The notes beneath the pieces were generated by a model. That model was not told where the DNA came from. It searched no databases and worked only from the letters and a program-made list of their open reading frames with translations. From the NCBI RefSeq assembly GCF_003053845.1, contig NZ_QAYG01000002.1:62001-126000 (forward strand): 64,000 bases of DNA, read 5' to 3'. Numbering within the stretch: the stretch's first letter is position 1; each line of letters opens with the position of its first letter. Source of the DNA: Breoghania corrubedonensis (GTDB taxonomy: Bacteria > Pseudomonadota > Alphaproteobacteria > Rhizobiales > Stappiaceae). Below, piece after piece: positions 35,616-45,054 of this stretch. The position numbers and the translations under genes are program-made.

Positions 35616-35945
35616 CTATGTGGCACCGATCACGAGGACGGATCGTGCCGCCTCGACGACATCATCAGTGATCGTCTTGAGCCCGTTAATGCGCAAGATG
35701 CGCTCGATCTGGACAAACAGCCGGTGCACGAGACGGAAATTGCCGTCCGTGATCCGGACAATCGTGGCAACGGCCTGGGTATCTGTGAAGTCGGCGTCAT
35801 CAAGGTTGAGCCCGAGCTGTCGCCAGCGTCGGGTGAGGACGAACGTCAGTTCCTTATCCTGCAAAGGCCGATAAGCATGGGCGAAACCAACGCGGCTGGA
35901 GAGTTGAGGGTAGCGGGCAAGCTTCATCTGAATGCAGGAGCGCGA
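35616..35945 (-). pseudogene. C-terminal fragment of a transposition AAA ATPase (TniB/IstB/MuB-like)
   Basis: An open frame of about 105 residues reads LARYPQLSSRVGFAHAYRPL, FTDTQAVATIVRITDGNFRL, VHRLFVQIERILRINGL and ends SVLVIGAT. This is the lid/C-terminal region of AAA ATPases that accompany DDE transposases; the Walker motifs are missing. It is joined upstream to a piece of a different transposase, so the frame running further upstream is a chimera. Confidence 0.6.
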
Positions 35946-35954
35946 ACGCACGGG

Positions 35955-36110
35955 CATGTAGGCCTGACATAGAAGCTCTCCATGAAGCGGCTTTGCATCG
36001 GCCTTTCCTGGCGCAATGTCGTGCCATCCAACACCACGATCCTGCTGCCAAGCAAGCGTCGCATTCGAGTTGAGCTGAGTGCCATTGTAGCCGACCACCT
36101 TGCAGAGACA
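35955..36110 (-). pseudogene. IS3-family transposase OrfB, frameshifted catalytic-core fragment
   Basis: In one frame the strand reads NGTQLNSNATLAWQQDRGVG and WHDIAPGK; after a frameshift it continues RPMQSRFMESFYVRP. Together this equals the end of the IS3-type rve core (NGTELTSN..W..IAPGKPMQNGF.ESF), with the DDE Glu in MESF. The frameshift and missing ends make it a dead remnant at the edge of the restriction island. Confidence 0.6.
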
Positions 36111-36187: not shown

Positions 36188-37114
36188 TCACTCTTCCGAG
36201 AAGAAGTCCTCGTCCAGCCGCTTGAATTCGATGATCCGGTGCGTGCGCACGCCGACGCCATGCTCGATCATCAGGCTCGCGAGGCGGGCGCCGTCGATGA
36301 GAACGACGCGCTGGGCGAGATGCTGAACGAACTGCTGGGCGCCCGCGCTGAAAGTGGACGTGGTGACGAACACGCCCTTCGTCGCCCCGAGCCCCACCAG
36401 CGAGCCGACGAATGCCTGCACGTCGGGCCGGCCGACCGTGACATGCCCCGCGTACCGCTTGGCCTGGACATAGACCCGATCAAGCCCGAGGCGATCCTCG
36501 TTGATGACCCCGTCGACGCCGCCGTCGCCGGTGCGGCCGAGCTGCTCGGCAGCGTTCCGGTGCGAGCCGCCGTATCCCATGGCGACAAGCAGATCGACGA
36601 TGAGCTGCTCAAAGAAGGACGGACCGTTCTGCAGGATCCGTTCGATCAGATCACCCCGCAGCGCGGCATCGAGCGCCTTGTGGGCGGCCTCGATCTGTTC
36701 CTCAGGTGTGGAGCTGCTATCGCGGGGGGAGGCGGCATGTGCCGTCGCCTCGCCTGTCGGGGTGCCGTTGTTGCTGCTTTTGTAGAACTCGCGGAAAGAC
36801 GCAAATTGCATCAGAAGGTCAACATCGATGCGCTCCGGCGAAGACGCCAGAAGCGCCCTGCCCTCGTCCGTCGCGATGAAGCGACCGCGCGCCGGCGAAG
36901 CGACAAGACCAGCCTTGCCCAGGTAGAACTTCGCCCAGTGAATGCGGTTGTGCAGGATCCGTTGGCGTCCACTCGGCAGCAACTCCTCGCGTTCCTCCAT
37001 CGTGAGCCCGAGTTCATCGGCAATCCGCTCCGCCACCTCCGGCACACGCCGCTCGCCTTCGGCGGCCTGGCGCAGGACGGGGAGCATCAGGGTCTGGTAG
37101 TCGGGAATGGGCAC
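36188..37114 (-). CDS. mrr: Mrr-type restriction endonuclease
   Basis: A 308-residue protein. The N-terminal Mrr_N winged helix is about residues 1-90 (PDYQTLMLPVLRQAAEGERR, LHNRIHWAKFYLGKAGL). The catalytic Mrr_cat domain is about 160-290, with the PD-(D/E)xK variant D201 in GDGGVDGVI and Q217-K219 in VYVQAKRY. Mrr enzymes cut DNA carrying foreign methylation. Its start is three bases after the stop of the GIY-YIG-like frame, so it is the last gene of the hsd operon. It must tolerate the HsdM methylation made by the same operon. Confidence 0.9.
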   Translation of the reverse strand: MPIPDYQTLMLPVLRQAAEGERRVPEVAERIADELGLTMEEREELLPSGRQRILHNRIHWAKFYLGKAGLVASPARGRFIATDEGRALLASSPERIDVDLLMQFASFREFYKSSNNGTPTGEATAHAASPRDSSSTPEEQIEAAHKALDAALRGDLIERILQNGPSFFEQLIVDLLVAMGYGGSHRNAAEQLGRTGDGGVDGVINEDRLGLDRVYVQAKRYAGHVTVGRPDVQAFVGSLVGLGATKGVFVTTSTFSAGAQQFVQHLAQRVVLIDGARLASLMIEHGVGVRTHRIIEFKRLDEDFFSEE

Positions 37115-37117
37115 GGC

Positions 37118-37561
37118 CTACACCTCTCCGGATAGAGCATTGCCTACGGCTTGATGACCGGCCAACCATGCCCCCTCGATCTGCATATCGTTTGCGAGAA
37201 AGAACTCGTAGCCGAGCGGTTCAGCCCCTGCCCTCTGCAGGCTATATTTCATCGCGTTTTCCCCTTCTTCCGCAATTTTGCAGTTGAGGCTGGGCGAGCG
37301 CCCCACTTCAACTTTCAGGATTTTCCAATCGAAGGCACATTTCGGTATGGCCTTGTTGAAGGCGTAACACCGCGTCTTCGGCGATCCTGAATAGCCGACC
37401 TTGATCACGCTCAGACCCTCGACCTCGGCAGCCGGCCTACCCAGAAAGTGAGAGAGATTGCCGTGCAGCTTCAGGATGTAGAGGTGCTTTGAACCATCCG
37501 CTTCCTCGACGGTGTAGGGTGAAGTTGGGCGTGGAACCGTCGAACTGACCGAGAGCTTGCG
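37118..37561 (-). CDS. GIY-YIG/T5orf172-like C-terminal module after an in-frame TGA
   Basis: This 147-codon stretch is in the same frame as the gene upstream and follows its TGA without another stop. It reads SKHLYILKLHGNLSHF, LSVIKVGYSGSPKTRCYAFN, ENAMKYSLQRAGAEPLGYEF: the Tyr-strand, KVGYS.SP..R and Glu/EFF pattern of T5orf172/GIY-YIG-like domains. A GTG at 37408 could start a shorter protein, but it would lose the first core strand (LYILKLHG). It is therefore most likely either the tail of one longer protein or the remains of one. The stop lies three bases before mrr. Confidence 0.6.
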   Translation of the reverse strand, partial: RKLSVSSTVPRPTSPYTVEEADGSKHLYILKLHGNLSHFLGRPAAEVEGLSVIKVGYSGSPKTRCYAFNKAIPKCAFDWKILKVEVGRSPSLNCKIAEEGENAMKYSLQRAGAEPLGYEFFLANDMQIEGAWLAGHQAVGNALSGEV

Positions 37562-38671
37562 TCAAAACGGCTCCGGCGTTGTATCGAATGTCCGGCGACC
37601 TCCGAAGCAGGGAACCTCCACGACAGGCAGGTCAAGCAGACCGCGCGCCTCGCTCGCATCAAACCGTTTGCAGTATCGGGCGATCGCTATGCGGCTCGAG
37701 GGATCGCCCGCCGTTCGCGGAACGAATTCATCGATCATTGGCCTATGTTCGTCTTCAATCTTCCAGGCGCGTGCTGCCTGAACGCCGAAGTTCCATCGCC
37801 CCGCCATGCCCGGATCGGCTTCCTTGCGGGCGAATGCATCGTCCGGCATGAAATCGCGGGCCGTGCCGGGCTGGCCCGTCAGCTCAAGAAAGCCTACCAG
37901 TCTGCCTCTGAGTTGCGGTGAGTGCGGGGATGTGCTGGTGACATAGACCGCCACGATGCCTCCGGGATTGAAGTCTTCCAGAAAGCGGGCGCGGTCGGCC
38001 TCGCTGGAAAAGCCGATAAAGCCCCATTCATGGGGGTCGAAACCCCAGGCCGATGTCAGCCAGACGTCGGGCGGATCGCGGTCGAAGGGATCGTCCGGCA
38101 AAGCAGCCTCCGCCCGCACATGCCGGGGCGCGATGATGTTCGCCTGAATCAGGCCATCGATGACTTCTGGATGGATCGTCCAACGATAATGGGCGTGGGC
38201 GATGCCGTCCGCCCCCTCGGCGAGGATCGTCGTCCAAATCTCATCGACATAATCGCCTTCCTTCGGCGTCAGGCCGAAACGCGTGCCGATCTTCTTGCCG
38301 AGTTCACCGTAATAGCGGTTTGCGCCACGAAAATCCTGCCAGCCTGCCGCCTCGGAAAGCTCCGTCGCGGTCAACGTCCCGGCGCGGGCATGGGCCTGCA
38401 GCATCGCGCGTTCGTAGTCGGCCAGCGGCGTCAGCCGGAAATAGTCGGCATATTCCTCCGCGGTCCCAATGTTCGGTGCCCGTCGTCCCTCGGATTTGAC
38501 GGCGTGGGAATTGTCCACCCATTGGCGGGCATCCGCCATCGCCTCCTCCACCGTATCGGCCGTGAAGCGCGGTGCCACCTGACCTCCGCCAGCGAAGATC
38601 GCGGCCTGCGCCTTGCCGTTGCGCACGTCGCCGACGATCAGATATCCCCTGTGGTTCTCTTCCTGCCGCAT
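37562..38671 (-). CDS. Unrecognised modular protein in the restriction operon
   Basis: Starting at the ATG after GAGGGGGAGAGCC, 369 residues. Visible parts: a short beta-rich N-terminus (GYLIVGDVRNGKAQAAIFAG), a helical segment (DYERAMLQAHARAGTLTATE, LSEAAGWQDFRGANRYYGEL) that looks like a small DNA-binding or adaptor fold, and a beta-rich region (WGFIGFSSEADRARFLEDFN, IVAVYVTSTSPHSPQLRGRL) reminiscent of PUA/EVE-type modified-base readers (weak inference). It ends FDTTPEPF-TGA, after which the same frame continues into a GIY-YIG-like module. The gene starts 24 bases after hsdS, in the same operon. Confidence 0.7.
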   Translation of the reverse strand: MRQEENHRGYLIVGDVRNGKAQAAIFAGGGQVAPRFTADTVEEAMADARQWVDNSHAVKSEGRRAPNIGTAEEYADYFRLTPLADYERAMLQAHARAGTLTATELSEAAGWQDFRGANRYYGELGKKIGTRFGLTPKEGDYVDEIWTTILAEGADGIAHAHYRWTIHPEVIDGLIQANIIAPRHVRAEAALPDDPFDRDPPDVWLTSAWGFDPHEWGFIGFSSEADRARFLEDFNPGGIVAVYVTSTSPHSPQLRGRLVGFLELTGQPGTARDFMPDDAFARKEADPGMAGRWNFGVQAARAWKIEDEHRPMIDEFVPRTAGDPSSRIAIARYCKRFDASEARGLLDLPVVEVPCFGGRRTFDTTPEPF

Positions 38672-38695: not shown

Positions 38696-40039
38696 TCAGC
38701 CCACCTTCTTCCTCCCCCGTCCGGCTTTCGGCTGGGCCGCGCGTTCAGCCTTGATGCGCTCCAGCAGGACGCTTGCGGGTTCGTCGGCGGGATCCTGGGG
38801 CACGAGTTCGCCGCGAAAGGCCTTGGCGAGGAGCGCCTCGTCGAGCTTGCCCAGAAGCGCAAGCGCCCGCTTCGCCTCCGCCGCCAGCCGGTCGATCTTC
38901 CCGAAGGCGGCCTCGATGCGGCGGACGATTTCTTTTTGTTCCGGAAGGGGAGGAAGCGGGATCTCCAATTCACGGACTGTCTTTCCGTTGATCTTCGGCA
39001 TATTGCCGGCAGTTCCAGTAGCTCGGCTTTGGAAGTACCGCCGTACCTGCTCTGTATTCAGAAAGCGCCAAAGATATCGAGTTAATATCTCGTTGCTTAC
39101 CCGGACTCTCATCATCAAATCAGGGTAGATATATTCCAGTTCCGGCCCCTCAAAAATCGCCGAAGCCCCAAGATGCTCAAGAGAATTCGCTCTCTGTATA
39201 AGTATATCTCCCGGTCGAAGCCAAAATCTCGAAGAGATATCGACATCATTCCCGATGTATTTTATTGTATATTCGTTTAAGATCATTTTTCCTGAAGTTG
39301 TGGCGGATAGCTTCAGGGTTTTTGTCCCGACCGGATCGGTTGACGTTTTGGGAGACCATCCGTTGGACGGACCTTCGCGGACCAATGTACCAATGGCCCT
39401 GCTCTTCCATTTGCTGCTCCCCCTATTCTGCCCCCTCCATTCCCGTGTCAGTTCCCCATTGAACGCCTTGGTCAGCACCGCCTGTTTGTAGCGGGTGACG
39501 AGGGTGTCGATGCGGGCGAGGTCGGTGCGGGCGCGGGCGGATTTCGCGCTCAGGCTCTCCAGCTTGGCGACGATGCGCTTCTGTTCGGCGAGCGGAGGAA
39601 GAGGAATAGTCGTCTGCTCAAACTTGCCTTTTGTGACATGACGCAATCCGACGCCCCCATGGGCCTTTCCAATCAGTTCGTCGAGCTTGTGATTGATGCC
39701 CAGCCTAAAAAACTTGCGATTTATATCCTGTTCACGGAATTCGACTTTGAAGATGTGCTGATTGAGGACAGCTTTGCCACCATGCCAAACATGTGCCCCA
39801 AAGGACGTTCCTGGTGTGCCTGACCAAGCAAAGAGCAACTGGTCTTCATCTATTAAAAAGCGCGGGTCGACTTCACCGGAAAAATAGTTGAAAGCCGCAT
39901 CGGGGTTGTTCAAATTTTGGATTCTGACGATTGGTAATCCGGAATCGGACCAGTCACTTGGTTTGAATGCCTTTCCGTTGACCAGATTACATAGGTCTCG
40001 AATCTCAGCAGTCGCCCACCCCCTCGGCAGCCCACTCAT
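38696..40039 (-). CDS. hsdS: Type I restriction-modification specificity subunit HsdS
   Basis: An ATG at 40039 overlapping the hsdM stop (ATGA) gives 447 residues. Two target-recognition domains (about 1-150 and 215-365) alternate with two similar conserved spacers, each beginning IPLPPLxEQK (IPLPPLAEQKRIVAKLESLS and IPLPPLPEQKEIVRRIEAAF) and ending KAFNGELT / KAFRGELV. This is the standard HsdS architecture and sets the bipartite target. The recognition domains are AT-richer than the spacers, a sign of exchange. No disruption is seen. Confidence 0.93.
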   Translation of the reverse strand: MSGLPRGWATAEIRDLCNLVNGKAFKPSDWSDSGLPIVRIQNLNNPDAAFNYFSGEVDPRFLIDEDQLLFAWSGTPGTSFGAHVWHGGKAVLNQHIFKVEFREQDINRKFFRLGINHKLDELIGKAHGGVGLRHVTKGKFEQTTIPLPPLAEQKRIVAKLESLSAKSARARTDLARIDTLVTRYKQAVLTKAFNGELTREWRGQNRGSSKWKSRAIGTLVREGPSNGWSPKTSTDPVGTKTLKLSATTSGKMILNEYTIKYIGNDVDISSRFWLRPGDILIQRANSLEHLGASAIFEGPELEYIYPDLMMRVRVSNEILTRYLWRFLNTEQVRRYFQSRATGTAGNMPKINGKTVRELEIPLPPLPEQKEIVRRIEAAFGKIDRLAAEAKRALALLGKLDEALLAKAFRGELVPQDPADEPASVLLERIKAERAAQPKAGRGRKKVG

Positions 40040-41580
40040 TCCGCCACCTCGGCCGCGTCTGCCGCGCCGTCCTCCAGCTCCGCGCCCAGCGCCTCGATCT
40101 CGGTCATCGCGGCCTGCAGATGTCCGAGGATGGCGGCGGCGATGTCTTCCGGCTCGATCAATCCCTCTTCGGCCTCCTCCTCCGCCTCGCGCAGCCAGGT
40201 GATGTCGAGATTGTCGCCGCGCGCGGCGATCTCCTCGCGGGTGAAGCAGCGCCAGCGGCCCTCCTCTCCCTCGTCCTCGCCGCGCTCGGCGCCCAGTGGA
40301 TCGGGGCCGTAGGCTTTCTCGAAACCGGCGAAATGCTCCGCGTTGAGCTGGTTGGTCTTGCCGAATTTCGGCATCTGGGCGCGTAGGTCGTAGACCCACA
40401 CCTCATCGGTGTTGCCGGCCTCGGTCCTGGCGCGCGTGAAGAAGATGACGTTGGTCTTCACCCCTTGCGCATAGAAGATGCCGGTCGGCAGGCGCAGGAT
40501 GGTGTGGAGATCGCACCAGTTCATCAGCATCTGCCGGAGCGCCTTGCCGCGCCCCTCCTCGAACAGCACGTTGTCCGGCACGACGATTGCCGCCCGCCCG
40601 CCCGGTTTCAGCGCACGGATGCAGTGCTCGACGAAGGGAAGCTGGTAGGAGGAAACGGAATGCGTAACAGAGAGATCATCGCGCGTCGGCGCCCCGCCTG
40701 CCGGGCCAAACGGCGGATTGGTGAGGATCAGGTCGGCTCGTGCGAGGCGTGATCCGTCCGGTGAAAGCGTATCGCCCAGATCGACATTCTCGGTCGCAAG
40801 CCCATGCAGGTAGAGGTTCATCAGCAAGAGCCGATAGGTGGCCGGCACGTTCTCCATGCCGTGGAAGGCCTGATTGCGCTGGAACTCCTGCTCGCGCGTT
40901 CCAAGATCGAAATAATTGTCGCTCGCGCGCCGCATGGCGGTGTCGGCGGCGATGAGAAAGCCGCCCGTGCCGGCGGCCGGATCCTGAATGATCTCACCGG
41001 GCCGCGGCTTCATCAGCCGCACCAGCACCTCGATCAGCACGCGCGGGGTGAAATACTGGCCGGCGCCGCGCTTGGTCTCTTCCGCGTTCTTCTGCAGCAG
41101 GCCCTCGTAGAGATCGCCGAACTGGTCGCGTTCCTCGGAGAACCAGTTCAGGTCATCGATGGCATCGACCAGCGTCTTCAGGTTCTGCGGCTCGCGGATG
41201 AAGGTGGAGGCATTGTCGAAGATCGCCTGCACCATGTAGGGAAGCGCCACGCCCTCGGCATAGGCGAGCTTCTGGTCCTTGCCGGCGTCCCTGTCCGGCG
41301 GCAGCAGCAGCGCATCTTCCTTGCCGAGCTTGGCGTTGGCGTTGCCGAGCACGACAAGCGTTTCGCGGTAGAGCTGGAGCTTGGCCAGACCATCGGCCGC
41401 CACGATATCCGCCCACCGGTGGCCTTTCGGGATGGCGCGGGTCTCGCGGTCGCGCTCCTGCATCATCTTGAGAAACAGCAGGTAGGTCAGCTCGGTGACA
41501 TACTGCTGATAGGTGATGCCGTCCTTGCGCAGCACGGCGCACAGGCGCCAGAGCTTCTGGACGATGGCATTGGCGTTCAT
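40036..41580 (-). CDS. hsdM: Type I restriction-modification methyltransferase HsdM
   Basis: A 514-residue N6-adenine methyltransferase. An N-terminal HsdM_N helical region (to about 150) is followed by the SAM motif IQDPAAGTGGFLIAAD and the catalytic LILTNPPFGPAGG. The long acidic C-terminus interacts with HsdS. It methylates the host target and, with HsdS, forms the core complex for HsdR. It lies 60 bases after hsdR and overlaps hsdS. Confidence 0.94.
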   Translation of the reverse strand: MNANAIVQKLWRLCAVLRKDGITYQQYVTELTYLLFLKMMQERDRETRAIPKGHRWADIVAADGLAKLQLYRETLVVLGNANAKLGKEDALLLPPDRDAGKDQKLAYAEGVALPYMVQAIFDNASTFIREPQNLKTLVDAIDDLNWFSEERDQFGDLYEGLLQKNAEETKRGAGQYFTPRVLIEVLVRLMKPRPGEIIQDPAAGTGGFLIAADTAMRRASDNYFDLGTREQEFQRNQAFHGMENVPATYRLLLMNLYLHGLATENVDLGDTLSPDGSRLARADLILTNPPFGPAGGAPTRDDLSVTHSVSSYQLPFVEHCIRALKPGGRAAIVVPDNVLFEEGRGKALRQMLMNWCDLHTILRLPTGIFYAQGVKTNVIFFTRARTEAGNTDEVWVYDLRAQMPKFGKTNQLNAEHFAGFEKAYGPDPLGAERGEDEGEEGRWRCFTREEIAARGDNLDITWLREAEEEAEEGLIEPEDIAAAILGHLQAAMTEIEALGAELEDGAADAAEVAE

Positions 41581-41640: not shown

Positions 41641-44600
41641 TCACGCGGCCGATGGTGGCCATATCGCCTCGTTGATCTGCCTGAGCACCTCGTCCAGTTC
41701 GCCGTCGAATTCCTGTGCGATGCGCTTGAAGCCGCCGCGGTCGGCGAAGGCGCCCTGGTCGAACAATGTCGGGTCGGCGACGGGCTTGTCCTTCAGCGCC
41801 CGACCTATGCGACGCAGCCAGTCCTTCTGGCGCTGGGTCCAGGGGCGGGATTTCTCGATCGCGACGATCGCATTTTCCACCCGCTTGGCATAGGGCACCA
41901 GCGGATCGCCGATCGCGGCCTGTCGGACGAAGCCGATGATGTGGGCCGCGATGTCCGCGTTGCGGGCGCTGCCATAGGCGGCCCGCAGCATGGCCTCGGA
42001 ATAGTGATGCTCGTCGAGGAGCGCGGCCAGTTCCGACAGCTCCTTGCGGGTCAGCTCGCGCGGGCGCTGGGTCGCGGCAATCATCGCCGGCACGGCGTTC
42101 ATGTTCTGCCGCACGTAGCGCTCGAAGCCCTCGATGTAGTCCTCCGGCGTCGCGTTATCGCCAAAGATCTCACGGATGTGGAGGAGTTCATCCTCGTGCG
42201 TGGAGATGGCGACACCATCGCCGGGCCCGCGCCGCCGGACAGGCGGACGATCGAGGATCTCGATGGCGCGGGGATGCTCGTCAAACCAGTGGCCAACCTC
42301 GTGGCCGGCCCGGCGCGACAGGTCGGTGACGGCTTCTTCCGGCGTCTGGCCGGCGGCGCGGGTGAACTGCTCGATCTGGTCCTCATCGAGGCGGCGAGCG
42401 AGCGAGCGCATGCGCACCACGATCTGGCCCGCCACCCAGTTCCGGTCCTCGTCCGTTTGCGCATGGCCGAGGTCGGCTGCGAGCTGCGCCATGGAGATAT
42501 CCGGCCGCACCACGACAGGGCGCATGTCCGACATGTTCTGGAGGTTAGCGTAAAGATCGACGGCATCGAAAATGCGGAAGTTTTCCTTGCCGATCTCCGG
42601 GCAAAGGCGCGTGGCGCGGCCTATCATCTGGTCATAAAGAATGCGGCTGGCAACGCGGCGCAGGAAGACGAGATTGCAGATGGAAGGAATGTCGACGCCC
42701 GTGGTCAGCAGATCGACGGTGACGACATATTTCGGCAGCGGGTCGTTTCGGAACTTCAGGATGAGGTCCTGGTTTCCGGGCACGCTGCCCGTGATCTTCA
42801 TGACCATGCCGTGCGGGACGGCCGAGATGCCGTATTCTTCCCGCAGCTCTTCCGTCAGGATATGCACGACATCATCGGCGTGGCTGTCGCGGGCGGCGAA
42901 GATGAGCGTCTTGCCCGGGCGGTCCGGCGCAATTTCTGCGGCCAGCGCCCGGCAGACGACACGGTTGAAGTTCTCCGAGTAGACGCGCTTGTTGAAGGTG
43001 GCGAGGTCGTAGTCGAGAGAGACGTCGTCCGGCAAGTCGAAGAGATCGATCTGGCCAGTGCGCGGATCGATGATCTCGACCTCCTCCCCGCCCTCGAAAT
43101 GGATGCCGGCCTCGGCAAGCGCGGTGGTGATGCGCCGGGGCGGCAGATGGTCGTTGAGCCAGCCTTCCACCACCGCCTGCCGGTAGCCGTAGGAAAACAC
43201 CGGATCGCCGAAGATCTCGCGGGTGTGCAGCGCTGGCGTGGCGGTGAGCGCGATCTTCACCGCGTCGAAATAGTCGAGCACCTGGCGGTAGGCGCTCTGG
43301 TAATCGTCGACATTGCGGAAGCCTATGTCGGTTTCGCGCAACTCGGCATCGAGCGTGTAGCCGCGGTGGGCCTCGTCGACGATGATGCAGTCGTAGGTGC
43401 CGGGCGTCGGCCGGCGGTCGGGATCATCCTCGTTGAGGATGCGGGCGACTAGCGACTGCACCGTCGCGACCTGGACCTGATCCTCCGGTTCGGGCAGCCG
43501 CTGGTCGAGACCGGCGACCTTGTAGATCTGCGCGAACTTCAAAAGTCCCTCGAGTTCGGTCGTCTCCAGCGCGTCTGTCGTCTGTTCGCCCAACGCGGTC
43601 CGGTCCACCAGAAACAGGATGCGGCGGAACCGGCGGTGCTTCAGCAGCCGATACATCAACGCGACGCAGGTGCGCGTCTTGCCGGTGCCTGTCGCCATGG
43701 AAATCAGGATATTCCGCTGTCCGGCCTCCACCGCCTCTTCCACCGCGCGGACCGCATCTTCCTGATAGGGCCTCAGCGCACCATAGCCGAAGCCTTCTTC
43801 AGCCAGCCCCTGAGCCGCCGCGTCGACATCCGTCTCCAGCTTGGCGACGAGATCGCTCGGCGAAAACCATTCCGGCAAGACGCAATCCTGGTTCGTCGCG
43901 CGGCGCACGTCGCGATACCAGATGCCGGAGACCGTCTGCCACTGGCGCACATAAGACCGACCATTGGTGGCGAACACGAAAGGCACACGGAAGGGATCGT
44001 CCAGCCCATGCTGCCAGGGTGCGTCAGGATACCGGTTCCCGGGCTCCAGACGGATATCGCGGGCATAGCGTTCGGCCTGGCGCAACGTACCGGGCACATT
44101 GGTCGACTGGCGCTTCGCCTCGATGACACCCACACACGTGTGCCCGACGAAAAGCGCGTAGTCGACCGGACCGCTTTCGGTCGGCCATTCGGCGATCGCG
44201 ATATTGCGGCCAGCCTCCGGCCTCGTGCCGGCGGAATGGCGCAAGGTCTTGCTGTCGGCCTCCCATTGCTTGTCGATCAATTGAACGTCGATGAGCAGGC
44301 GCGTGTCGGCTTCGTCCAGCTCCAGTTTGCCGGCCGCATCACGGCCCGCCTGCTTCAGCTCGACGCGAATCTGGGCTGGTTCGGCCGCAGCTGCGGCTTG
44401 AAGAGCCTCAAGCTGTTTCGCGAGTTCGTTCTGGCTGGCTTCGAATTCAGCCGCCGTCTGCTCCCAGACCACGCTCTCTGCCCTCGCCTGTCCGGCGAGT
44501 TCCTCCGCCGCCTGCCGGGCGCGCACCTGTTCTTCTGCGGAGGCGTGCGCGGCTCGGAGTTCGGCCTCCGCGGACAGAACAGCCTTTCTCAGTTCCGCCA

Positions 44601-45054
44601 GTTCCTGACGGAGGGCTTCATCTTCTCCCCGGGGATCGGGAGGCGGAACGAAGGCACCGGGCTTGAAATTCGGATCGCGCCCATAGGTCTGACGGAACCA
44701 GACGCCCAGCGAACGGCAGAACTTGAGGGCTGAAAGCGCCTCGGCATGGGTGCCGGTAAATTCATGCGTTGCCTCGTTGCCTTGCCGCCGGACGGCGTGA
44801 AAAACGTCGGCAACCTGCCGGGGAAGAATTCCCTCATAGACCAAGCGGCGCAGGAGATCGTTCTGGTTTTCTCGGCGGTCGGGATCGTATGCAGCGGAGC
44901 GCGCAGCAATCTCCTTGAGCAGAAGTTCCGCGAATTGGCGGCTTTTGATAAGCGAAGTGTTGGCGTCCTCCGCAAAGAAGCGCTCGGCCAATACACCAAG
45001 TTGGCGCAAGGGCCCGCTCAAAGGTTGCAAATGATCAAAATTCGCGGAATGCAT
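41641..45054 (-). CDS. hsdR: Type I restriction endonuclease subunit HsdR
   Basis: The start MHSANFDHLQPLSGPLRQLG at 45054 agrees with family N-termini and gives 1137 residues; a longer frame adds a poor 39-residue leader. Parts in order: a DUF4145-like N-terminal helical region, a coiled coil (about 170-245), the nuclease core with PVDYALFVG and VIEAKRQ (PD-(D/E)xK), the SF2 motor with MATGTGKTRTCVAL and DEAHRGY, helicase motifs including LLTTGVDIPSI and QMIGRATRL, and a C-terminal coupling region. It translocates and cleaves unmodified DNA. Confidence 0.94.
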   Translation of the reverse strand: MHSANFDHLQPLSGPLRQLGVLAERFFAEDANTSLIKSRQFAELLLKEIAARSAAYDPDRRENQNDLLRRLVYEGILPRQVADVFHAVRRQGNEATHEFTGTHAEALSALKFCRSLGVWFRQTYGRDPNFKPGAFVPPPDPRGEDEALRQELAELRKAVLSAEAELRAAHASAEEQVRARQAAEELAGQARAESVVWEQTAAEFEASQNELAKQLEALQAAAAAEPAQIRVELKQAGRDAAGKLELDEADTRLLIDVQLIDKQWEADSKTLRHSAGTRPEAGRNIAIAEWPTESGPVDYALFVGHTCVGVIEAKRQSTNVPGTLRQAERYARDIRLEPGNRYPDAPWQHGLDDPFRVPFVFATNGRSYVRQWQTVSGIWYRDVRRATNQDCVLPEWFSPSDLVAKLETDVDAAAQGLAEEGFGYGALRPYQEDAVRAVEEAVEAGQRNILISMATGTGKTRTCVALMYRLLKHRRFRRILFLVDRTALGEQTTDALETTELEGLLKFAQIYKVAGLDQRLPEPEDQVQVATVQSLVARILNEDDPDRRPTPGTYDCIIVDEAHRGYTLDAELRETDIGFRNVDDYQSAYRQVLDYFDAVKIALTATPALHTREIFGDPVFSYGYRQAVVEGWLNDHLPPRRITTALAEAGIHFEGGEEVEIIDPRTGQIDLFDLPDDVSLDYDLATFNKRVYSENFNRVVCRALAAEIAPDRPGKTLIFAARDSHADDVVHILTEELREEYGISAVPHGMVMKITGSVPGNQDLILKFRNDPLPKYVVTVDLLTTGVDIPSICNLVFLRRVASRILYDQMIGRATRLCPEIGKENFRIFDAVDLYANLQNMSDMRPVVVRPDISMAQLAADLGHAQTDEDRNWVAGQIVVRMRSLARRLDEDQIEQFTRAAGQTPEEAVTDLSRRAGHEVGHWFDEHPRAIEILDRPPVRRRGPGDGVAISTHEDELLHIREIFGDNATPEDYIEGFERYVRQNMNAVPAMIAATQRPRELTRKELSELAALLDEHHYSEAMLRAAYGSARNADIAAHIIGFVRQAAIGDPLVPYAKRVENAIVAIEKSRPWTQRQKDWLRRIGRALKDKPVADPTLFDQGAFADRGGFKRIAQEFDGELDEVLRQINEAIWPPSAA

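What the first reader, a model, noticed from the sequence alone, without database searches (positions are those of the whole stretch)
37118..38671. One modular restriction-operon protein split by a single in-frame TGA
The frame from 38671 stops at TGA (37562-37564), yet the same frame then stays open for 147 codons to 37118. The 51 codons before the first possible internal start (GTG 37408) already contain a core strand of a GIY-YIG/T5orf172-like domain. So the domain boundary is the TGA, not the GTG. The stop is followed by C, the leakiest context for UGA readthrough. Either programmed readthrough makes a long nuclease-fused form and a short form, or the gene has a fresh nonsense mutation. 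The gene is embedded between hsdS (24 bases) and mrr (3 bases), so the operon itself is not decayed. The long form, with a putative modified-base reader and a GIY-YIG-like nuclease, would be an unfamiliar addition to a type I system.
Basis: partly seen in the sequence, partly recalled or inferred. Interest (0 to 1): 0.75.

Follow-up and report, generated by a model that had tools for sequence, protein, structure and literature searches.

The report
Nonsense-split modified-DNA reader–nuclease gene
A bacterial DNA-defence gene, which in related bacteria makes one protein joining a modified-base reader to a likely DNA-cutting domain, is cut in two here by a single stop codon that looks like a recent mutation rather than a programmed switch.

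Summary
In detail: the frame from 38671 stops at TGA 37562-37564, then stays open for 147 codons. Relatives explain it. In 28 of 28 distinct loci where both parts were found, the middle and post-TGA domains lie in one frame with no stop between them. The closest, unnamed same-family genome G412, has the whole operon in the same order: HsdR 73%, HsdM 79%, HsdS 38%, fused protein 49-54%, Mrr 68%. The middle domain models as a YTH/EVE-type modified-base-reader fold. The post-TGA domain is a divergent GIY-YIG/T5orf172-like nuclease, with weaker support. EVE-GIY-YIG fusions are already in print (PMC7641849).

The TGA was seen in this genome only. The sequence after it shows no relaxed selection (branch 0.55, G412 0.56; dN/dS about 0.29). 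I found no SelB over its cut-off, no tRNA-Sec, no UGA-reading tRNA among 44 typed, and no unusual RNA fold; the "leaky" TGAC context is the commonest stop context among the window's other long ORFs (10 of 39). Best reading: a recent nonsense mutation between the domains, leaving a reader without its nuclease. Base-call error and functional readthrough are not excluded. Interest is low.

The parts
37565..38671 (-). Upstream part of the split gene, 369 codons from ATG 38671 (preceded by AAAGAGGGGGAGAGCC): N-terminal module plus EVE/YTH-like domain
38102..38671 (-). N-terminal module, residues 1-190, function unknown; not matched in the G412 operon; similar stretches occur elsewhere without the EVE domain (L009, L076, L077)
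   Evidence: no Pfam hit for the upstream half or for those three stretches; low model confidence
37598..38077 (-). Middle domain, residues 199-358, EVE/YTH-like (PUA superfamily) predicted modified-base reader
37562..37564 (-). In-frame TGA (followed by C), position 370 of 517, between the two conserved domains and just before the low-confidence stretch 371-390 of the model
37118..37561 (-). Post-TGA open frame, 147 codons plus TAG; conserved domain about 37121-37489, GIY-YIG/T5orf172-like
36188..37114 (-). mrr, type IV-like restriction endonuclease (Mrr_N + Mrr_cat), 3 bases after the split gene, GGAGAGG 8 bases before its GTG
38696..40039 (-). hsdS, type I specificity subunit, 447 codons from ATG 40039, 24 bases upstream of the split gene (family searches used it from 40030, three codons short)
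40036..41580 (-). hsdM, type I methylase subunit
41641..45051 (-). hsdR, type I restriction subunit (start codon not settled; frame open to GTG 45171)

Best explanation
The gene between hsdS and mrr normally encodes one protein. An EVE/YTH-like domain is predicted to bind a modified base in incoming DNA, and a C-terminal GIY-YIG-like domain is predicted to cut it, so the protein would work as a modification-dependent (type IV-like) accessory of a type I operon that also carries Mrr. Shown: the two domains are one uninterrupted frame in 28 of 28 distinct loci where both were found, one of them in the same five-gene operon. In this genome one nonsense codon between the domains separates them. 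The likely product is the 369-residue N-terminal module plus reader, without the nuclease, and the 147-codon tail is probably not made as a working protein. The lack of any visible decay after the stop suggests that the mutation is recent on the lineage's timescale. Inferred, not shown: base binding, cleavage, loss of activity, and any reduced mrr expression through loss of translation over 441 bases.
For: 28 of 28 distinct relatives (30 loci, 2 duplicates) have both domains in one frame with 0 stops. Over all 120 loci held, tblastn (E 1e-3) found no locus with the two domains in different frames; outside fusions it found the middle domain alone in 8 loci and the tail alone in 1 (L053, E 0.001). 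In profile searches that read through stops, only G000 has a stop between the two domains: 1 of 14 rows, 1 of 7 rows. In one search, 3 of 8 rows show a stop: G000, plus two that lie upstream of the open frames. G412 has HsdR 73%, HsdM 79%, HsdS 38%, fusion 49% and 54%, Mrr 68% in the same order. Selection is similar on both sides of the TGA: dN/dS 0.47/1.36 for the middle domain and 0.42/1.46 for the tail; terminal branches are window 0.66 and G412 0.51 (middle), window 0.55 and G412 0.56 (tail); 15 of 16 invariant tail columns are kept. SelB: 0 of 10 matches over the cut-off. The best tRNA-Sec hit is a tRNA-Ser. None of the 44 tRNAs typed, of 46 Rfam matches, has a UCA anticodon. RNA fold at the stop: z +0.87. 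TGAC ends 10 of 39 other long ORFs in the window.
Against: Intact constraint after the stop is equally what functional readthrough would leave. The TGA sits between the domains, the tidiest place for a two-form gene (the interdomain stretch is about 36 of 517 positions, so chance is not negligible). UGA-C is documented as inefficient termination in bacteria (PMC5289835, passages). No second strain of this species was available, and the two same-genus genomes have no copy, so recency rests on absence of decay: simulated neutral drift without a new stop still has probability 0.28 at 0.1 and 0.045 at 0.3 substitutions per site. The tRNA list is probably incomplete (no tRNA-Ile with GAT among those typed).
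Confidence: 0.75

Rival explanations
1. Functional UGA readthrough: a near-cognate tRNA misreads the UGA-C stop in a fraction of passages, giving mostly reader-only protein and a little reader-nuclease, perhaps to limit a harmful nuclease.
For: Tail fully open and constrained; stop between the domains, next to a stretch of low model confidence; UGA-C reported as an inefficient stop (PMC5289835, passages).
Against: 0 of 28 distinct relatives have a stop there; TGAC is the commonest stop context among the other long ORFs, 10 of 39; RNA fold z +0.87; no UCA-anticodon tRNA among 44 typed.
Confidence: 0.08
2. A base-call or assembly error: the gene is intact in the organism.
For: Seen in one assembly only, in 21 contigs; no decay on either side.
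Against: Both halves are in the same frame, so only a substitution error would do; those are rare in a finished assembly (general knowledge). Reads were not available.
Confidence: 0.08
3. Two separate proteins are made: the tail is started independently at GTG 37408 (96 residues) and works alone or in trans.
For: GAGGG lies 7 bases before GTG 37408.
Against: That start loses the first strand with the invariant Y398 and G404 columns; no locus was found with the two domains as neighbouring separate frames.
Confidence: 0.04
4. UGA is selenocysteine or the genome reads UGA as an amino acid.
For: One Rfam tRNA-Sec match just over the cut-off, 47.1 against 47.
Against: ARAGORN types that gene as tRNA-Ser(tga); no SelB over the cut-off; 29 of 39 other long window ORFs end at TGA; the only Trp tRNA typed is CCA.
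Confidence: 0.01

Closest known systems
EVE-GIY-YIG fusion proteins (PMC7641849, BMC Biol. 2020: section 9 read whole, passages elsewhere)
   Same: Reader domain of the EVE/YTH kind fused to a GIY-YIG-type nuclease domain, in a restriction context
   Different: Here split by a TGA and preceded by an extra 190-residue module; sequence too divergent for Pfam EVE or T5orf172 to call it. I did not check whether this exact subfamily is in that paper's set
   Same: Same genes in the same order
   Different: Fusion is uninterrupted, 336 codons, and has no match to the N-terminal module
GIY-YIG nuclease family protein WP_341485871.1, Thioclava sp. GXIMD4215 plasmid p2
   Same: EVE-like plus T5orf172-like parts (both below Pfam's cut-offs) in one CDS, near a gene annotated restriction endonuclease subunit S
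   Different: About 31% identical; uninterrupted, 317 codons

Membership tests
EVE/YTH-like (PUA superfamily) modified-base reader | Fold of the domain | tested here: met
   Intact relative L060 modelled (pLDDT 84.9). Foldseek best hits are Mmi1 YTH (prob 0.97, E 0.0099) and S. marinus McrB N-domain (6n0s, prob 0.95, E 0.017); THYN1 with 5mC DNA (5j3e) and 2eve follow at prob 0.63 and 0.35. No hit reached E 0.001, and the whole read-through model gave nothing useful, so met on a coherent but moderate signal
EVE/YTH-like (PUA superfamily) modified-base reader | Sequence match to Pfam EVE | tested here: inconclusive
   3 of 19 relatives, best E 0.052; L067 E 0.0092, below cut-off; window protein none
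EVE/YTH-like (PUA superfamily) modified-base reader | Binds a modified base | not testable with these tools
   No assay
GIY-YIG (T5orf172/MUG113) nuclease | Sequence match to a GIY-YIG family model | tested here: inconclusive
   T5orf172 2 of 19 relatives, best E 0.013, and MUG113 2 of 19, best 0.042. L074, a distant EVE-profile relative, passes T5orf172 (5.4e-6, 27.3 bits against 20) and aligns to this domain through KVG, R, N and E at P 0.0076, but hhalign probability is only 5%
GIY-YIG (T5orf172/MUG113) nuclease | strand-strand-helix-strand-helix core with Tyr, (Y/V)xG, Arg and Glu | tested here: inconclusive
   Order agrees: model strands 395-404 and 421-428, helix 431-441, strand 447-454, helix 464-480; invariant Y398, K424, G426, R434, E471 in 21 of 21 rows. 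But the motif pattern is recalled, and no solved GIY-YIG structure was among the rows shown by Foldseek or the PDB profile search
Programmed UGA readthrough gene | Stop conserved at the same place in relatives | tested here: not met
   0 of 28 distinct relatives
Programmed UGA readthrough gene | Long form made in vivo | not testable with these tools
   Needs protein or ribosome data
Selenoprotein | SelB and tRNA-Sec in the genome | tested here: not met
Type I restriction-modification operon | Open hsdR, hsdM and hsdS with their family domains | tested here: met
   Pfam matches over the cut-offs for all three; frames uninterrupted

The most novel reading that the evidence does not exclude
The stop is a young, functional switch: UGA-C readthrough makes a little reader-nuclease on top of a reader-only protein that competes with or regulates it, so a modification-dependent nuclease in a type I operon is dosed by translation termination.
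Probability: 0.07. Interest if true: 0.6.

Novelty: new member of a known kind. Interest (0 to 1): 0.22.

Why it matters
It gives a likely role to an unannotated gene in a type I operon: none of Pfam, NCBIfam or PADLOC recognised either half, while relatives and a modelled fold place it with modified-base reader-nuclease fusions. It also shows how a lone in-frame stop can be read: constraint after the stop alone does not separate a fresh nonsense mutation from readthrough, whereas absence of the stop in relatives, tRNA content and stop-context counts make the ordinary reading more likely.

Tried and rejected
Pfam, NCBIfam and PADLOC on the separate halves gave nothing at E up to 1. Rejected: chance open frame; selenocysteine; suppressor tRNA (44 of 46 Rfam tRNA matches typed by ARAGORN, no UCA anticodon; the two without a call, L119 and L120, stay untyped; the set looks incomplete); RNA stem at the stop; +1 slippage at the TTT TGA C stretch (it would enter a frame other than that of the conserved tail; from the sequence). 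The PDB profile searches found no useful relative (two chains of one entry, DHT03, at E about 0.8; none). Foldseek on the whole read-through model was uninformative. Viral contigs: 94 pattern matches, 0 relatives. Phage records: none for the middle domain. Plasmids: 1 record for the tail, 3 for the middle domain, none for 16 kb of neighbouring DNA. Two apparent stops inside other relatives (G145 TAG, G1091 TGA) lie upstream of the open frames. One search also listed stops in two matches to the N-terminal half only (L009, L012), which do not bear on the middle/tail boundary. Left out of the 28: loci where tblastn found the middle domain alone (L011, L013, L051, L052, L056, L057, L059, L065) or the tail alone (L053), and profile-only matches (L054/L071, L055/L073, L058, L072, L074); of these L052 (by the profile) and L074 (by Pfam) do reach into a GIY-YIG-like part in one frame. 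Row L009 was dropped from the alignment after it misaligned (A6 to A7). A search of 11 genomes behind named loci with the N-terminal module found nothing. Literature searches; none listed a restriction gene with programmed readthrough, but there I saw only titles, starts of abstracts and counts. The GIY-YIG core test was lowered to inconclusive.

Full report
Observation. The gene from ATG 38671 on the minus strand meets TGA at 37562-37564 and the frame then continues for 147 codons to TAG 37118-37120. hsdS ends 24 bases before it and mrr starts 3 bases after it. All stated coordinates hold. The local base composition gives about 0.0025 for 147 open codons, and the extension has clear relatives, so it is coding or was until recently.

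What the protein is. Neither half matches Pfam, NCBIfam or PADLOC at E up to 1. Relatives were sought in 385 genomes of the class with the upstream half (11 with a match), in 61 relatives with the tail (3), with a profile of the fusion in 397 genomes of the order (13) and 87 of the family (7), with a wider profile in 398 of the phylum (8), in the named genome collection (14 loci) and in plasmids. The window's own genome is counted. I took 30 loci in which tblastn found both the middle domain and the tail; two were duplicates of others. In 28 of 28 distinct loci both parts lie in one frame with no stop between them. Because that set was chosen for holding both parts, I also ran the two parts against all 120 loci held: no locus has them in different frames; the middle domain is alone in 8 loci and the tail alone in 1 (L053, E 0.001). 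The 14 loci were found through the tail only, and in 14 of 14 the middle domain precedes it in the same open frame.

Closest relative. Its fusion is 336 codons and has no match to our first 190 residues. A Thioclava plasmid carries the fusion near a gene annotated restriction endonuclease subunit S, named GIY-YIG nuclease family protein. A Limimaricola plasmid has it as one hypothetical CDS.

Domains. An AlphaFold model of the intact G412 protein (pLDDT 84.9) gives, by Foldseek, Mmi1 YTH (probability 0.97, E 0.0099), the N-terminal domain of S. marinus McrB (0.95, E 0.017), and further down THYN1 with 5-methylcytosine DNA (0.63) and 2eve (0.35), the name-giver of EVE. No match reached E 0.001, but the list is coherent and Pfam EVE appears weakly in 3 of 19 relatives. 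The tail has the order strand, strand, helix, strand, helix with invariant Tyr398, Lys424, Gly426, Arg434 and Glu471. T5orf172 and MUG113, both GIY-YIG-type (recalled), appear weakly in relatives; T5orf172 is significant in the distant EVE-profile relative L074. The profile comparison of our tail to L074 aligns the motif residues but is weak (probability 5%, P 0.0076). No solved GIY-YIG structure came up. I therefore call it GIY-YIG-like, not proven. The first 190 residues are a separate module of unknown function.

The stop. It lies at position 370, between the conserved domains; model confidence is 84 for residues 361-370 and falls to 58 and 44 for 371-390. Facts that speak for a mutation: it is absent from all 28 distinct relatives; the genome shows no SelB over the cut-off and no tRNA-Sec and no UGA-reading tRNA among 44 typed of 46 matches, a set that looks incomplete; and there is no special RNA fold (z +0.87).

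Age of the stop. With the topology fixed, the window's terminal branch is 0.66 for the middle domain and 0.55 for the tail; those of G412 are 0.51 and 0.56. Thus the tail shows no speeding up. dN/dS against G412 is 0.47/1.36 before and 0.42/1.46 after the stop, with dS near saturation. Of columns at least 90% conserved in the other 20 rows, the window keeps 22 of 26 (middle) and 27 of 30 (tail); of invariant tail columns 15 of 16. Departures in the tail are at 394, 488 and 509. A simulation of neutral substitution gives probability 0.28 of no new stop at 0.1 and 0.045 at 0.3 substitutions per site, a loose bound. These results fit a recent mutation or functional readthrough equally; the private nature of the stop and the prior for such events favour mutation. 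A base-call error cannot be excluded without reads.

Mechanism. Inferred from the parts: the EVE-like domain recognises a modified base in invading DNA and the GIY-YIG-like domain cuts. PMC7641849 (section 9 and passages) reports numerous EVE-GIY-YIG fusions in putative modification-dependent restriction and standalone EVE proteins beside type I systems. In this genome the product would be a reader without its nuclease; hsdR, hsdM, hsdS and mrr remain open. The mrr gene has its own GGAGAGG before GTG 37114, so it may still be translated; a polar effect of the untranslated 441 bases is possible but untested.

Organism. G364 and G591, told as same class and same order, hold loci identical in the compared stretch to a named alphaproteobacterial MAG contig and to Pleomorphomonas diazotrophica, so the host is an alphaproteobacterium of that order. 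A family of 87 searched genomes in 7 genera, though 150 were asked for, makes Rhizobiaceae, and so Brucella, unlikely (inference).

Verdict. Observation confirmed.

Noticed in passing
   Followed up: partly
L038, L040, L041, L044, L045: The fusion recurs beside a large upstream ORF that looks like a methylase and a downstream ORF sharing SPPASGKSRALMFIALDKL (helicase-like by eye), a recurrent non-type-I arrangement; families not searched.
   Followed up: no
   Followed up: partly
window 38102-38671; L009, L076, L077: The first 190 residues resemble stretches found elsewhere without an EVE domain; the first 58 or so residues are modelled strand-strand-strand-helix (low confidence). No family match for those stretches.
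   Followed up: partly
window 35619-36098, minus strand: A 160-codon ORF just after mrr resembles, from memory, the C-terminal part of a TniB-type transposition ATPase with an unrelated start; no Pfam match at E 0.01. Possible mobile-element remnant.
   Followed up: partly
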